Origin: Bullera alba
Lineage: Eukaryota > Basidiomycota > Tremellomycetes > Tremellales > Bulleraceae
NCBI GenBank assembly: GCA_001600095.1
Contig: BCIX01000001.1
Location: 5,667,198 to 5,731,197 of the forward strand
Length of the DNA: 64,000 bases
Direction: 5' to 3'
The position numbers and the translations under genes are program-made. The notes below the pieces were generated by a model. That model saw only the letters and a list, made by a program, of their open reading frames with translations. It was not told where the DNA came from and did no database searches. Within the stretch, counting starts at the first letter, position 1, and each line of letters starts with the position of its first letter. Shown here piece after piece: positions 39,738 through 46,320 of this stretch.

Positions 39738-42085
39738 ATGGTGAGTTGTCAGGTTTATGAACGTGTCAGAGGACGATGGAGCACAGAATGAGACCTTTGT
39801 GGAACGCCTTTTGGTATCAACAGCCTTTCAAGGAAGAAACTCTTTGTCCGGCCGATCGCATCGTCGTGAACGCGTAACTGACGACTCCTCTTTCCACAGG
39901 GTCAAACACTCTCAGAACCAGGTCAGTATTATGGACCGTTCGCTCGAGCGAGACGCTGATGTCAGCTGTTTTGTTCATCACCTCCTTTATCCTCACACGA
40001 CCACTTACTACGTGTTTGCTCACGCCCCGCAGTCACGGAGAAGCACACCACGGTTGTCGTGCGTGGAAAGCAGTATTGGGTCGGACTCTCGGACATGCAA
40101 GGATGGCGAATAAGTGAGTGAATGGTGTCGAGCTCTTCTGATACCCTAGGTATGGAGGATGCCCATTCGGTCCACCTTTACATGCCCTCCCCTAAATCCT
40201 CTTCCGCCCCCATCGAGCCTTCTTCCGAGACTATCCCCGAGCAGCCTACAGGATCGACAGTCACAAACAACTCGCCCGACAACCAAGATGGAAACGCGCT
40301 CTTTGGTGTGTTCGATGGACACGGCGGATCGACGGTCGCCAAGTTTGCTGGAACAACGTTGCACAAGCGTCTATCCGACTCGGACGCGTACAAGTCAGGA
40401 GATTATGACAAGGCATTGAAAGAGACCTTCCTGAAGACGGATGAGGATCTGAGAGCGGATGCTAGCTTTTTCAACGATCCAAGTGGTTGTACCGCTGTGG
40501 TGGGGTTGATAACCCAGGACGGAAGAATCATTGTGGTATGTCGCTGAAGTCGAGGAAGCGTTTGCTGATCTTATAGGCCAACTCGGGAGACTCCAGATCG
40601 GTCCTTGGCTACAAGGGCGAGGCGAAAGCCATGTCTCACGATCACAAGCCAACGAATAAAGGTGAGTAGTTTGTCCTTCCCAGAACCAGTACTGATTTTC
40701 TCCCAGAGGAGACTGCGCGAATCACTTCGGCCGGTGGCTTTGTCGAATTCGGTCGTGTCAATGGTGAGTCTGGCTCCCAGATGACAATGCTGACCTGCAG
40801 GCAACCTCGCTCTGTCGCGTGCTCTAGGAGATTTCGAATTCAAGCAGAATCACTCGCTAGAGCCAGAGAAACAAATTGTCACCGCCGACCCCGATATCAT
40901 CACGCACAAGATCGACGGAGAGGAAGAGTTCCTTGTTCTCGCTTGCGACGGTGAGTTGCCGTCTACAATCAGAGCTGATCCTGCAGGTATCTGGGACTGC
41001 TTGACTTCGCAGCAGGTCATCGACTTTACCCGACGGGCCATTGCAAACGGAGATGACCTCGGCAAGATCTGCGAGGACATGATGAAGAAATGCACTGCGA
41101 CCGAGTCGGATACAGGCGGAATCGGATGCGACAACATGACGGTCATCGTGGTTGCCCTGCTCAACGGCCGAACTCCGGAGGAGTGGCAGCAGTGGGTCCA
41201 GGAACGGGTAGAAAAGAAACGTAAGTCTTCACTTGACGATCAATGCTGACTGGCAGACGGCTACGACACCCCAGCCAGCGTTCCGGACATCTTCGGCCAG
41301 ACGCAAGGACGTGGATTGACGGGAGGCGTGACCAGCGGCATGGGTATTGGCGGAGGCGCGGGTGGCTTCCGAGTTGCCGGCGCCGGCGGCCTGGCCAATA
41401 TCGCCAGCATATTGGGCGCTTCCGGCATCACTTTCAAGCCCAGCGATGACAGCGACGAGGATGAGGACGACGAGGACGATCTGCAAATAATCGGAGACGA
41501 GAGCCAATCGGATGTTCCTGAAAGCAAAATCAAGGAGATCAACCAGAATAGCTATATCGATGATAAAGGACTAAAGGGAGACACCAAGCCCTCGGATGTC
41601 ACTGATAAGCTGGTGAGTAAGCCCTAAAAAGCCCCACCAGCTTGATCTCCATTTCCCCATTGTATAAATAGACGACGTCGCTGAATGAATCTGCTTTGCC
41701 CCCCTTTGCGCAGGACTCGACCTCTGCTCTCGACACGGACAGTCAATCTGGTAGTGTGAGACTGGTTGACGAGGATGGCGACTCGACCATGGATTCTGGA
41801 GATGATTCGGATGAGACGACAACGGGGGAACCCTCGGCACCGGCAAAGTCATCGGGAACGAAGACGCCAAATTTCACCTCTGTCGGCTCACCAAACGTTC
41901 CACCTCACAAAGAGCTTCTCCCTCTAGATGACAAGATTGGCGGTGGCAAGCAGAGCAACAAGGATAGATTGAACGATTCGTCCGATCAAAAGCAGTTTGA
42001 AACTGTCCCACTCGGCGACGAGCCGAGTGCTGCGGTAGGGACCGAAGGACTGATGGACACGAGCGAGAACCCAACAAAGATGTAG
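39738..42085 (+). CDS. PTC2: PP2C-type Ser/Thr phosphatase, Ptc2/Ptc3 group
   Basis: Metal-dependent phosphatase that in yeasts switches off stress MAP kinases and the DNA-damage checkpoint. Exons: 39738-39740 (ATG only), 39900-39921, 40033-40113, 40150-40535, 40577-40661, 40707-40763, 40801-40950, 40987-41220, 41257-41612, then from 41672 (or 41715) to 42085. The N-terminus MGQTLSEPVTEKHTT is diagnostic for this group and proves the 3-nt first coding exon; Gly2 is a possible myristoylation site. Metal-binding motifs: WRISMEDAHS, VFDGHGGS, NSGDSRSVL, ALSRALGDFEFK, ACDGIWDC, GCDNMTVIVV. The C-terminal 280 residues are acidic and Gly/Ser-rich, as in Ptc2/3 tails. Two acceptors for the last exon are both in frame, so 14 residues are uncertain. 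Confidence 0.92.
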
Positions 42086-42316: not shown

Positions 42317-43712
42317 ATGAACCCACATCAGGCCCAAGCCTCGTCGTCGAAACCGGTCAGACCTGCGGGCGCGCTCACCCCTGAGTTACTGGGCAGATTC
42401 AAGCCAGCCAAGGTATTCACCGAGGAAGCCCTCGAGAGAGGCGCACCGGGATCATCACCTGCTCAAGGTGCCAGCTCGACCAGTCTGAAGCCTCAGATCA
42501 TATCCATCGCCTTTGACGATACAGGAGATCGATGCTTGACCAGCGGAGAGGATGAGGGATTCACACTGTGGGACGCGAAGAAGGGAAAGTGAGTGAGACT
42601 GTGCGCTTGTAACGAAGACTTGAGCTTACTGGTGGGTAGGAAACTACGCAACTTCTGGTCAAAGAAATACGGAGTCTCCCTCGCCCGCCTGACCCACAAG
42701 GCGGGCAATAGCATTCATTCGTCGACAAAAGGCAATGACCATGCGCTACGATACCACTCCGCGCATGATAACAAGTATCTGTCGTATTTTTCGGGACACA
42801 CAGGAAGGTGAGTAGACCGGCCTGCCTGGCTGTCGCTCAATCCGAGCTCATTGTTATCAGAGTCCGATCGCTGCACATGAATCCATGCAACGATACGTTC
42901 CTCACCGCTGGTGATGATGGAAGTGTGAGACTGTGGGATCTAAAGTCGAATCATTGTCAGGTGAGCATTGGCTTCCGATGCACCACTGACGAGGACAGGG
43001 CGTATCAGAAGATTTGGGCGGGTCCACCATCGCTGCATTCGACAACACCGGCGCCATCTTCGCAGCAGCTGTCGCCGACACTCAGTATATCCTGCTCTAC
43101 GACGTCTCGGCCATGGACTCGGTACGTTGGCCAGCATAGGCTAGCTTGTTGACATTTCACAGACCGCCTTCCACTTTGTCCAACTGATCGACGTCTCATT
43201 AAGCAGAATATCTGAACCCCCGCCTAAGGTCGATTTCACCTCCATACATATTTCAAACCACGGCAAGTACCTCCTCATCGGAGCCGCCGGTGATGCCCAC
43301 TACCTCTTCGACGCCTTCGCCCTCCTCCCATTGCGCAAGCTAGTCGGTCATGTGGGGCTCGGTAAATCCAGTGGAGAAGAGGTCTCCTTCACAGCCGACT
43401 CGAGGTTCGTTGTCTCAGGCTCGAACGATGGGAAGGTGTACTTCTGGGACCTGGGCACGGAGGACCTCACCGGGCCTGAGACAATGGAACGTCCCTGGGT
43501 GGAGCTCAGACCGTGCGCCGTGGCCAAGTCGTCGTTGGACCCCGGACCGAGCCGTTGTGTGAGATTCAATCCGCGGCATCAGATGATGGCCGTCGGAGGC
43601 AACGAGCTGGTGAGTGACTTCAGTCTGCCCGCAGTGCAGCACGCTGATCCGCTCTCAGTCGTTCTGGATACCTGCACCCGATGAGGAGGCTCTACTAGAG
43701 GAGGGACGATGA
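42317..43712 (+). CDS. SWD2: WD-repeat protein Swd2 (COMPASS / 3'-end processing)
   Basis: Exons 42317-42588, 42640-42807, 42861-42960, 42999-43121, 43163-43609, 43659-43712; 387 residues. WD repeats are visible as ISIAFDDTGDRCLTSGEDEGFTLWD, VRSLHMNPCNDTFLTAGDDGSVRLWDLKS, STIAAFDNTGAIFAAAVAD and VSFTADSRFVVSGSNDGKVYFWDL. The phrase LRYHSAHDNKYLSYFSGHTGRV with FWIP at the end (SFWIPAPDEEALL) is characteristic of Swd2/WDR82. The protein serves both the Set1 H3K4 methyltransferase complex and the cleavage/polyadenylation factor. The last exon (54 nt) has a decayed second copy about 1.5 kb downstream, inside the peptide-gene duplication. Confidence 0.9.
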
Positions 43713-43889: not shown

Positions 43890-44611
43890 CTAAAGACCCT
43901 CATCGCCGTCGTCGTGGTAGTCGCTGCTCTCCTCCTCCTCCTGGCGCTTGTATGGCTTGGCGCCTCCAGCGTACTGGAAGTCCTGCCCTGCCGGCTCTCC
44001 CTCTTCCTCGTCCTGCCTCTTGTAAGGCCTGGCACCCCCTGAACGTTGGAAATCCTCCGCTTCTAGCTGTTGCTCGTCGCCCTCCTCATCGTCGTCATCC
44101 CTCTTGAAAGGTTTGGCCCCACTGGAGTTTTGGAAGTCCTGACCTTGAGGCTCGTCGCCCTCACTCTCGCCCTCGAAGTCGTCCTCTTGCCGCTTGTAGG
44201 GTTTGGCACCACCAACGTACTGGAAGTCCTGGCCCTCCGGCTCGGTCTCATCTCGCTTGTAGGGTCGCGCTCCGCCGGAGTGCTGGAAGTCGAGCTCCTT
44301 GGGCTTTCCCTTATTGTCAGGTTTACCGTGGTGACCGTGTGATTTTGGATCTCGAGAAGCGATCTTGCGAACGGCGCCGTTGACATCGGCCGTCACCAGG
44401 GTGCCCTTGTAGTCCTTGATCAGACCATGGGTAGTGGACTCTAAGGACTACAGTCGAAGTGTCAGCTACACGTTGCACCAGTCGGTCTGTAGACCTCATG
44501 GACGACAGTACCCACTCTCTCGAAGGGAACATCACCATTGACGGGCTGAGGCAACGCGCAAACGGCGCTCACAGAGAGTAGGAGGGTGAATAGGGCTTTG
44601 GTAGGTAGCAT
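43890..44611 (-). CDS. Secreted precursor with five Kex2-bounded peptide repeats (copy A)
   Basis: Exons 44611-44516 and 44447-43890; 217 residues. Signal peptide MLPTKALFTLLLSVSAVCA, then a pro-region with THGLIKDYKGTLVTADVNGAV and SRDPKSHGHHGKP. Five units follow, each ending in Lys-Arg: DFQHSGGARPYKR (85-97), DFQYVGGAKPYKR (106-118), DFQNSSGAKPFKR (136-148), DFQRSGGARPYKR (164-176) and DFQYAGGAKPYKR (188-200). Spacers are strongly acidic and usually end in Gly-Gln. Kex2-type cleavage after KR would free acidic-tailed peptides whose conserved 11-residue core is DFQxxGGA(K/R)PY. This is the layout of multi-copy secreted peptide precursors (pheromone-like, Rep1-like). The core shares F-x3-G-G-A-x-P-aromatic with the Cryptococcus peptide Qsp1 as I remember it. 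No cysteine in the repeats and no CAAX box, so not a lipopeptide mating pheromone. Confidence 0.82.
43944..44291 (-). repeat. Five coding peptide repeats of copy A
   Basis: 39-nt units at 44291-44253, 44228-44190, 44138-44100, 44054-44016 and 43982-43944. Spacers are 24, 51, 45 and 33 nt and encode acidic residues. Unit sequences are more alike than spacers, which suggests selection on the peptide. Confidence 0.85.
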
Positions 44612-44723
44612 GATGTCTGTGAGTGGTAGGTGGAAGGGGATGAGTGGGGAAGACAGGACGTCCACTGGTCGATGCCGGTCGAGATATACGTTTACTTGAC
44701 CTTCACCGTCGAAAGTTGTGTTT

Positions 44724-44743
44724 CAGGTGCGTGGCTGGAATGA
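44724..44743. promoter_or_regulatory. Conserved upstream block, copy A
   Basis: CAGGTGCGTGGCTGGAATGA (plus-strand reading), about 113-132 bases upstream of the copy A start. An identical block sits at 46415-46434 upstream of copy B, followed in both by ATTYCGATCTGGACC and GGCGCCATA. The rest of the two upstream regions is less alike, so the block may hold a control site. Confidence 0.5.
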
Positions 44744-45197
44744 CCAACATTCCGATCTGGACCATGGGCAAGGCGCCATATCGTCCAACATATCAGAAAC
44801 CATTCGCCATTCTTCGTGCTTGTGGCTATACATAGCGCCAGTACGGGTCAGCTGTCAGCGTGTCAGTGAGATACGACTCGTGATATCGACGTTAGGGATG
44901 TTGTAATGCAGTCTCAATCGCCGCAATATCAGTTGCCGACTGCCGTATGCCGGAAGTAGTCTCCAGTGCTCGCTTCACTTGAATCCAACCCCAACTGCCG
45001 CTAGCGAATAGCGATTAGTGATGAGCGAGCTGAGGGCTTCCCCAGGCCAGGTCATACGGTGAGCGTATGTAACAGAGCTACACACGACATCACTTGCGTC
45101 TCCTGGCTCGAGCGCTGGAACGCATCAATGAGTAACGTGGTGTGACGAAGTGCAGGATCTCGATCTGTCTTTCTCCCCGCCGATCACTGTTCGAGCA

Positions 45198-45258
45198 TGT
45201 CTCAGTCGGTCTGACACCCGGCGAGCAGGCTTTTACCGAGAAGGAGGTGGTGAGACCA
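45198..45258 (+). pseudogene. Decayed copy of SWD2 last exon
   Basis: TCTCAGTCGGTCTGACACCC and the following GCGAGCAGGCTTTTACCGAG line up with the acceptor plus last exon of SWD2 at 43653-43717 (TCTCAGTCGTTCTGGATACC, then GATGAGGAGGCTCTACTAGA), including the bases just after its stop codon. Substitutions and small gaps destroy the frame. It marks one border of the tandem duplication. Confidence 0.6.
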
Positions 45259-45401
45259 TTGTAATGTGTTCGTTCATGTCATACCCACAGCATCGACTTC
45301 ATGAGTCATCGTCGTACAATCAGGTATAAGCTCAAAATCGTTCGTTCTCGTCTCAGGTCGTTATTTTCACCACATCGTCCTATACCACTGCAGCCAAGCG
45401 T

Positions 45402-45482
45402 CTAGAGCGGCCCGGCGTAACCGAAACGTTGAACATCCTCCGCGTCTACTTGTTGCTCGTCGCCTTCCTCCTCACCGTCAAC
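45402..45482 (-). pseudogene. Degenerate, out-of-frame peptide-repeat remnant of copy B
   Basis: On the minus strand one frame reads EEEGDEQQVDAEDVQRFGYAGPL and a stop (23 residues; the key part is EGDEQQVDAEDVQRFGYA). It matches EGDEQQLEAEDFQRSGGARP of copy A residues 154-173. It lies downstream of the copy B stop codon at 45544 and in another frame, so it is no longer translated. Confidence 0.6.
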
Positions 45483-45543
45483 CCTCTGAGACGGCTCTGC
45501 CCCGGGGGAATATCGAGAGCTCTAACCTTGAGACACATCATCC

Positions 45544-46320
45544 TCACTCCCGGGCCTCAGCGTCCTCCTCTCCATTTCCTGCTTCGTCGTCCACCTCCCC
45601 TGCTTGTTCCTGACCTTGCTCGTCGTCCTCACTTAGGGCTTCAGCGTCCCCGTCCCCGCCTCCTTCCTCGACGGCCCCCTCACCCCCGTCTTGGTCCTCA
45701 GCGGTCTGACTCGTGGCCTCGGCGTCCGCCCCACCATTCCCTCCTGGGCCATCGTCCACCTCCCCTGCTTGTTCCTGACCTTGCTCGTCGTCCTCACTTA
45801 GGGATTCAGCGTCCCCGTCCCCGCCTCCTTCCTCGACGTCCCCCTCACCCCCGTCTTGGTCCTCAGCGGTCTGACTCGTGGCCTCGGCGTCCTCTCCTCC
45901 ACTCCCCCCTTGGACGTCGTCTTCTTCTCGTTTGTAGGGCTTAGCACCACCGATGTATTGAAAGTCCTGACCATCCGGCCTGATCTCTTCTCGCTTGTAG
46001 GGTCGCGCCCCGCCGGAGTGCTGGAAGTCGAGTTCCTTGGGCTTGCCATGGTGACCATGTGATTTCGGATCTCGAGAAGCGATCTTGCGCATTGAGCCGT
46101 TGGCATCGACTGTCACGAGCGTGTCCTTGTAATCTTTGACAAGACCATGGGTAAGGGAGTCGTACGACTGAAGGTCGAGTTATCAGCTACACGGCATCCA
46201 CGCGATGGAAGTTGAGGTACTCACCCTTTCGACCAGACCATCGGCGGTGACGGGCTGAGGCAGAGCGAACACGGCGCTCAGAGTGAACAGGAGGGTCAAA
46301 AGCGCTTTGGTAGGGACCAT
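45544..46320 (-). CDS. Secreted precursor with two peptide repeats and acidic tail (copy B)
   Basis: Exons 46320-46225 and 46167-45544; 239 residues. Signal peptide MVPTKALLTLLFTLSAVFA; the pro-region THGLVKDYKDTLVTVDANGSMRK is nearly that of copy A, and the single intron is in the same place. Two intact units remain: DFQHSGGARPYKR (79-91) and DFQYIGGAKPYKR (100-112). The remaining 127 residues are Glu/Asp/Gly-rich and consist of two copies of a 55-residue acidic module (DAEATSQTAEDQDGGEG...EDDEQGQEQAGEVDD). Paralog of copy A by tandem duplication. It has lost units and gained the acidic tail, so it may be less productive, or the tail may be a long spacer. Expected in the secretory pathway and cut by Kex2. 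Confidence 0.78.
45588..45892. repeat. 165-bp-period tandem repeat in copy B
   Basis: Two near-identical 140-bp blocks at 45588-45727 and 45753-45892 with a 25-bp divergent link. The period is 55 codons, so the frame is kept. Absent from copy A. Confidence 0.8.

What the first reader, a model, noticed from the sequence alone, without database searches (positions are those of the whole stretch)
43890..46320. Multi-copy Qsp1-like secreted peptide precursors
Two adjacent genes encode signal-peptide proteins carrying five and two copies of DFQxxGGA(K/R)PYKR. Every copy ends with a Kex2 site and is set between acidic spacers. The 11-residue core has F at position 2, G-G-A at 6-8, P at 10 and an aromatic at 11. 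The Cryptococcus quorum-sensing peptide Qsp1 is also 11 residues, as I remember it, and has the same F-x3-G-G-A-x-P-aromatic order. Qsp1 is made from a small precursor with one copy, so a tandem multi-copy arrangement would be a new form of this signalling system. If right, the peptides are secreted signals, probably taken up by an oligopeptide transporter.
Basis: partly seen in the sequence, partly recalled or inferred. Interest (0 to 1): 0.93.

Follow-up and report, generated by a model that had tools for sequence, protein, structure and literature searches.

The report
Multi-copy precursors of Qsp1-like fungal peptides
Two neighbouring genes of an unidentified fungus encode apparently secreted proteins that carry several copies of a short peptide resembling the Cryptococcus quorum-sensing signal Qsp1, and a third, similar multi-copy precursor in the same genome sits beside a peptide transporter gene as Qsp1 does, which suggests, but does not prove, a wider family of peptide signals.

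Summary
Minus-strand genes A (44611..43890, 217 aa, five copies) and B (46320..45544, 239 aa, two copies) have signal-like N-termini; 7 of 7 copies end in KR (one is the variant DFQNSSGAKPF). Between copies synonymous sites are near saturation while core and KR hardly change, so the peptide seems under purifying selection. These are Kex2-processed repeat proteins (KEPs) by anatomy. Direct similarity to Qsp1 (NFGAPGGAYPW) is only suggestive (shuffle p about 0.01-0.08). The stronger link lies 83 kb away, outside the window: KEP C, with seven visible copies of QCFGRSCGGAPPW and alpha-factor-like KREAEA spacers, 2 kb from an oligopeptide transporter gene and 6 kb from a PAP2 gene. In C. neoformans QSP1, OPT1 and a dolichyldiphosphatase are CNAG_03012, 03013 and 03014. 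C is thus the better Qsp1 counterpart; A and B look like diverged relatives. In the genome 12 of 13 matches to a GGA-x-P-aromatic-KR DNA pattern lie in A, B and C. Kex2 would release core plus leader, so an 11-mer needs a further cut. No expression or peptide data exist here; one metagenome fragment is the only relative found.

The parts
43890..44611 (-). Gene A: precursor with five core copies, 217 aa, two exons
44448..44515 (-). Proposed intron of gene A (68 bp), same place as that of gene B; chosen among 9 candidates, not confirmed by transcript
44253..44291 (-). A copy 1 DFQHSGGARPY-KR
44190..44228 (-). A copy 2 DFQYVGGAKPY-KR
44100..44138 (-). A copy 3, variant DFQNSSGAKPF-KR
44016..44054 (-). 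A copy 4 DFQRSGGARPY-KR
43944..43982 (-). A copy 5 DFQYAGGAKPY-KR
45544..46320 (-). Gene B: precursor with two core copies and a long acidic tail, 239 aa, two exons
46168..46224 (-). Proposed intron of gene B (57 bp), chosen among 4 candidates
45991..46029 (-). B copy 1 DFQHSGGARPY-KR
45928..45966 (-). B copy 2 DFQYIGGAKPY-KR
45587..45921 (-). Two tandem 165-bp units (94% matches) coding most of the acidic tail of B
45425..45552 (-). Relic at and after the stop of B, alignable to copies 3-4 of A (local score 89; best of 200 shuffles 33)

Best explanation
A and B are paralogous prepro-proteins of short secreted peptide signals. Inferred route: the signal peptide takes the protein into the secretory pathway; Kex2 cuts after each KR and a carboxypeptidase removes KR, freeing pro-peptides made of a mostly acidic leader plus the C-terminal core F-x3-GGA-[K/R]-P-[Y/F]; a second protease, comparable in role to Pqp1 acting on proQsp1, removes the leader; the free peptide signals to other cells, most likely by import through an oligopeptide transporter. 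They probably share ancestry with the multi-copy precursor C, which occupies what looks like the counterpart of the Cryptococcus QSP1-OPT1 neighbourhood. Shown: reading frames, copy number, KR sites, constraint on the core, closeness of C to an OPT gene, presence of Kex2-type, DPPIV-type and WOPR domains in the genome. Inferred: gene models, secretion, each cut, import, signalling, homology to QSP1.
For: Anatomy. Among 21 pairs of the 7 copies pS 0.83 against pN 0.12, and 0.058 without positions 4-5. P0001, a metagenome relative of B (135 aa), keeps both cores and KR exactly and differs by one spacer residue and one tail unit less. Shared context GQ-x-F-x(3,4)-[GS]GA-x-P-aromatic-KR in C and in 4 of 7 A/B copies, the other 3 lacking GQ. 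C starts 2 kb downstream of an OPT gene (TIGR00727, 640 bits against a cut-off of 438.7) and ends 6 kb from a PAP2 gene; in C. neoformans QSP1, OPT1 and a dolichyldiphosphatase are CNAG_03012, 03013 and 03014 (passages), the first two being neighbours (passages). Rough estimate after the fact: a given gene has 0.5% chance of lying within 4 kb of one of 12 OPT loci and 0.6% within 10 kb of one of 6 PAP2 loci. Kex2-type P domain, DPPIV_N and WOPR domains are in the genome.
Against: Direct similarity of A/B to Qsp1 is weak by shuffling, and the shuffles do not correct for choosing Qsp1 as the comparison. A/B cores are charged (D1, K/R9), Qsp1 is not. Copy 3 of A lacks the first G of GG; a Qsp1 with the second G changed to A is listed as inactive. 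No listed OPT match lies in the window. The first copies of A and B differ by one synonymous change only, so that pair says little about selection, and the N-terminal part also changes less at non-synonymous than at synonymous sites (16.5 in 109 against 16.5 in 35), so constraint is not unique to the cores. No transcript, peptide or phenotype. One relative of A/B and none of C was found (one search scored only the 7992 candidates sharing most words, and the database did not list the window's own proteins, so its cover of fungi is unclear). At C the gene order differs from what the locus numbers imply for C. neoformans, and no C. neoformans sequence could be compared. The PAP2 match is barely over its cut-off (27.8 against 27.2). 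B is partly decayed.
Confidence: 0.58

Rival explanations
1. A and B are ordinary KEPs whose GGA-x-P-aromatic ending resembles Qsp1 by convergence, and their function is something else (a hyphal surface peptide of the Rep1 kind, or a pheromone-like cue).
For: KEPs are diverse and mostly without known function (PMC7329392 and PMC6339444, abstracts and passages; PMC9769878 abstract start); direct shuffle significance against Qsp1 is poor; charge differs.
Against: Shared GGA-x-P-aromatic-KR context with C, 8-74 of 20,000 shuffles, and the OPT neighbour of C.
Confidence: 0.27
2. Precursors of cyclised peptides (dikaritin-type RiPPs), the tyrosine at position 11 being the cross-linked residue.
For: Multi-copy Kex2-type precursor with Tyr in the core; 65.6% of repeats of KEPs with nearby DUF3328 genes contain Tyr (PMC7329392, passage).
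Against: No UstYa/DUF3328 match in the own genome, a weak negative since no control genome rang; the discussion of PMC7329392 excepts Tremellomycetes from DUF3328 pairing (passage), which counts only if this fungus is one.
Confidence: 0.05
3. Acidic secreted proteins in which the repeats are structural or metal-binding and the KR sites are incidental.
For: D/E content 23% and 26%; long acidic tail of B without KR; HGHH motif in the N-terminal part.
Against: KR kept in 7 of 7 copies with 4 different Arg codons; compared spacers vary more than cores.
Confidence: 0.08

Closest known systems
Qsp1 / CQS1 (CNAG_03012) of Cryptococcus neoformans
   Same: Short peptide with F at 2, GGA at 6-8, P at 10 and an aromatic at 11; made as a pro-peptide; for gene C also an adjacent OPT gene.
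   Different: Qsp1 comes from a single-copy precursor (recalled, from no call) matured by Pqp1 (passage); A/B are multi-copy with Kex2 sites, have charged cores and no OPT match in the window.
Kex2-processed repeat proteins (KEPs)
   Same: Signal-like N-terminus, repeats, KR between repeats.
   Different: The letters GGA do not occur at a word start in the main text of PMC6339444 or PMC9769878; PMC7329392 was not searched for them. Tremellomycetes are reported as poor in KEPs (average 1.00 per strain). Supplementary type tables were not readable here.
Ascomycete alpha-pheromone precursors and the alpha-like KEP of Trichosporon oleaginosus (peptide QSWGGCGGRGTPCW, PMC6339444 passage)
   Same: Gene C has KREAEA-type spacers, two cysteines per copy and a C-terminal W.
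   Different: A/B lack cysteines and regular EA-dipeptide spacers; no STE2 match in this genome, again without a positive control.

Membership tests
KEP (Kex2-processed repeat protein) | Signal peptide | tested here: inconclusive
   Hydrophobic N-terminus with small residues before LPQPV in A and B by eye; no predictor available
KEP (Kex2-processed repeat protein) | Internal repeats | tested here: met
   Five and two copies
KEP (Kex2-processed repeat protein) | Kex2 site between repeats | tested here: met
   KR after 7 of 7 copies; Kex2-type P domain in the genome. Cutting itself not testable here
Qsp1 signalling system | Core peptide with F2, GGA 6-8, P10, aromatic 11 | tested here: met
   6 of 7 copies; the seventh has SGA. 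Weak on its own
Qsp1 signalling system | Single-copy precursor | tested here: not met
   A 5 copies, B 2 copies; C 7 visible copies. That Qsp1 is single-copy is recalled
Qsp1 signalling system | Gene next to OPT1 | tested here: not met
   A/B: none of the listed OPT matches lies in the window. For gene C, outside the window, an OPT gene is adjacent; its orthology to Opt1 was not tested
Qsp1 signalling system | Maturation by Pqp1, import by Opt1, intracellular action | not testable with these tools
   Needs mutants and peptides
Dikaritin RiPP cluster | UstYa/DUF3328 gene near the precursor | tested here: inconclusive
   No match in the genome, but no control genome rang

The most novel reading that the evidence does not exclude
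The Qsp1 signal is one branch of a family of imported fungal peptides that in some relatives is made from multi-copy, Kex2-cut, alpha-factor-like precursors: gene C at the QSP1-OPT1 locus keeps the older tandem form, and A/B are a duplicated, charge-altered second signal 83 kb away, so one cell sends two related peptides that could share or compete for one transporter.
Probability: 0.4. Interest if true: 0.82.

Novelty: new variant of a known kind. Interest (0 to 1): 0.62.

Why it matters
Qsp1 is described as a quorum-sensing peptide that acts inside the cell after import (start of the abstract of PMC7537855). A multi-copy KEP beside an OPT gene in a matching neighbourhood would tie Qsp1 to the large class of Kex2-processed peptides, offer a route by which a pheromone-like precursor became an imported signal, and give a ready search rule (KEP next to OPT) for finding imported peptide signals in other fungi.

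Tried and rejected
Literal 'A/B are the Qsp1 genes': rejected, because the OPT-linked candidate is gene C. RiPP cyclisation: no DUF3328 match, weak negative. Ste2-type pheromone system: no STE2 match, weak negative. Wider relatives: three protein searches gave P0001 and nothing for C (that query held 33 X). A fourth precursor in the genome: the one extra pattern match is antisense to a gene that looks by eye like a KH-domain gene; of three matches to a stop-codon pattern one is the last copy of C and two, both ending GGA-x-P-C, show no repeats in the three frames of the matched strand (the reversed control pattern gave 4). Pfam gave no family for A; for the readable first part of C it gave DUF2694 (23.7 bits, cut-off 22, but no stretch passing alone) and two weaker ones under cut-off, which I take for composition effects. 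The PAP2 frame was not recognised from a truncated piece, only from the whole frame; that it is a dolichyldiphosphatase rests on the Pfam superfamily and a recalled motif; no PDB match. Two DOIs recalled for the Qsp1 maturation and Cqs2 papers were not held. The match at C1:6595633 (E 0.09) looks by eye like a chance acidic match. Structure prediction was not used.

Full report
Setting. The window is C1:5667198-5731197 of an unnamed 19.4 Mb genome in 7 contigs, 54% G+C in the window. The species was not identified; a tremellomycete is my inference from the neighbourhood shared with C. neoformans.

The two genes. Gene A runs from 44611 to 43890 and gene B from 46320 to 45544, both on the minus strand, 932 bases apart, each with one proposed intron at the same place (68 and 57 bp). 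They encode 217 and 239 residues. Seven of seven are followed by KR. Residue changes are confined to positions 4 and 5, K/R at 9, and the S6 and F11 of copy 3 of A.

Selection. Over all 21 pairs of the seven copies the proportion of synonymous differences is 0.83 and of non-synonymous 0.12, falling to 0.058 without positions 4 and 5. The copies are related by duplication (copy 1 of A and of B, copy 2 of A and of B, are pairs), so the 21 comparisons are not independent. Between A and B, spacer 1 has 5 non-synonymous differences in 19 sites and the compared part of spacer 2 has 5 in 27, against 0 in 29 for core 1 and 1 in 31 for core 2. Core 1 has only 1 synonymous difference in 10 sites, so it is uninformative; core 2 has 7 in 8.5. 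The signal and N-terminal parts have 6 in 52 and 16.5 in 109 non-synonymous. These are small counts. The only relative found, P0001 (135 aa, 960-base metagenome contig), is near-identical to B and has one acidic tail unit less.

Decay and turnover. At and after the stop of B a stretch aligns to copies 3 and 4 of A (score 89 against at most 33 in 200 shuffles), with a stop inside. B carries a doubled 165-bp unit coding an acidic tail. So B probably once had at least four copies and has kept two.

What Kex2 would release. There is no basic pair directly before a core. Cutting after KR and removing KR gives 19, 28, 26 and 22 residues in A and 19 in B, each a leader plus core, besides the N-terminal piece that ends in copy 1 and the tail. 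An 11-mer needs another cut. In C. neoformans Qsp1 is secreted as a pro-peptide, matured outside the cell by Pqp1, and its action needs Opt1 (PMC7537855, passages). The likeness of the two-step route is inference.

Gene C. Searching the own genome with exon 2 of A gave six matches: A, B, the relic, two at C1:5796.5-5797.0 kb (E 7e-5 and 0.01), and one at 6595.6 kb (E 0.09). The gene model at 5796.2 kb (5796162-5797145, three introns, 272 residues of which 33 are an unread 100-N stretch) starts with MKVLSLLFAAVAATTAFAAPIAEP and shows seven copies of QCFGRSCGGAPPW, four before and three after the gap; six are followed by KREAE-type spacers and the last ends at the stop. Against shuffles, C matches Qsp1 better than A/B do (82 of 20,000 against 169-1568), and six distinct A/B contexts, KR removed, match C with 8, 16, 20, 20, 9 and 74 of 20,000. 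These shuffles keep composition and do not correct for my having looked for a likeness.

Neighbourhood of C. Upstream on the same strand lies an OPT gene (model 5790371 to 5794197, 1145 residues; its transporter part scores 640 bits with TIGR00727 against a cut-off of 438.7). Downstream on the other strand is a Zn2Cys6 regulator (5797.7-5800.6 kb; PF00172 25.2 bits, cut-off 21; its two other frames scanned match nothing), then an unassigned open frame, then a PAP2 gene (5803333-5803893; 27.8 and 28.8 bits, cut-off 27.2). A lumazine-binding (riboflavin synthase) frame and SNF5 lie on the OPT side. In C. neoformans OPT1 is CNAG_03013, QSP1/CQS1 is CNAG_03012, two papers use the intergenic region between them on chromosome 3, and CNAG_03014 is called dolichyldiphosphatase; all of these are passages, not whole papers. 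The OPT matches and both frames were in my listings before I read those passages, but I recognised and scanned the PAP2 frame only afterwards, so the comparison is after the fact. The order differs: here the precursor lies between OPT and PAP2, whereas the numbers put OPT1 between QSP1 and 03014. Orthology of OPT and PAP2 was not tested by sequence, as no C. neoformans sequence was at hand.

Other components. A Kex2-type P domain at C1:6522.6-6522.9 kb, DPPIV_N at C2:2172.0-2173.3 kb and two WOPR loci on C2 are present. No UstYa/DUF3328 and no STE2 match was found, but no control genome rang for either. The 53 OPT matches form 12 loci and the 7 PAP2 matches 6 loci by my grouping. In the window, 20 open frames scanned in two calls gave TANGO2, WD40, PP2C (two frames) and, under cut-off, HMGL-like and DUF445, and no transporter or protease; not all frames were scanned.

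Literature (search listings, abstracts and passages only; no paper was read whole). 7 papers hold at least three of Qsp1, Kex2, repeat, oligopeptide transporter, and none of these 7 holds both Qsp1 and Kex2; a paper with only those two of the four terms would not have been listed. 1 paper holds three of five related terms and has neither 'oligopeptide transporter' nor 'quorum sensing peptide'. Of 248 papers with two of Qsp1, Kwoniella, Tremellomycetes, Trichosporon, 15 were listed and none of these holds Qsp1. So these searches found no description of a Kex2-processed multi-copy Qsp1 relative; papers outside the library and supplementary tables were not seen. PMC7329392 lists a KEP type shared by Talaromyces and Cryptococcus (35 KEPs in 33 strains; passage); whether it is related to A, B or C could not be checked, and if it is, the novelty shrinks.

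Verdict. Well supported: two paralogous KEP-type genes with a constrained peptide core. Likely: common ancestry with gene C. Plausible: C is the QSP1 counterpart, and A/B are a second, diverged signal. Unknown: expression, processing, uptake, effect.

Noticed in passing
G000:C1:5790371-5803893 (L024-L026), outside the window: OPT transporter, multi-copy alpha-factor-like precursor C, Zn2Cys6 regulator and PAP2 gene together, resembling the QSP1-OPT1 neighbourhood of C. neoformans; the regulator beside the precursor is a candidate partner.
   Followed up: partly
L010 3225-3324: Run of exactly 100 N inside the repeats of gene C, perhaps an assembly gap that holds about one more copy.
   Followed up: no
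window 45425-45552: Relic of two further core copies at and behind the stop of gene B.
   Followed up: partly
window 40122-41246 and 43145-43684: PP2C phosphatase exons and a WD40 protein next to gene A; ordinary neighbours.
   Followed up: no
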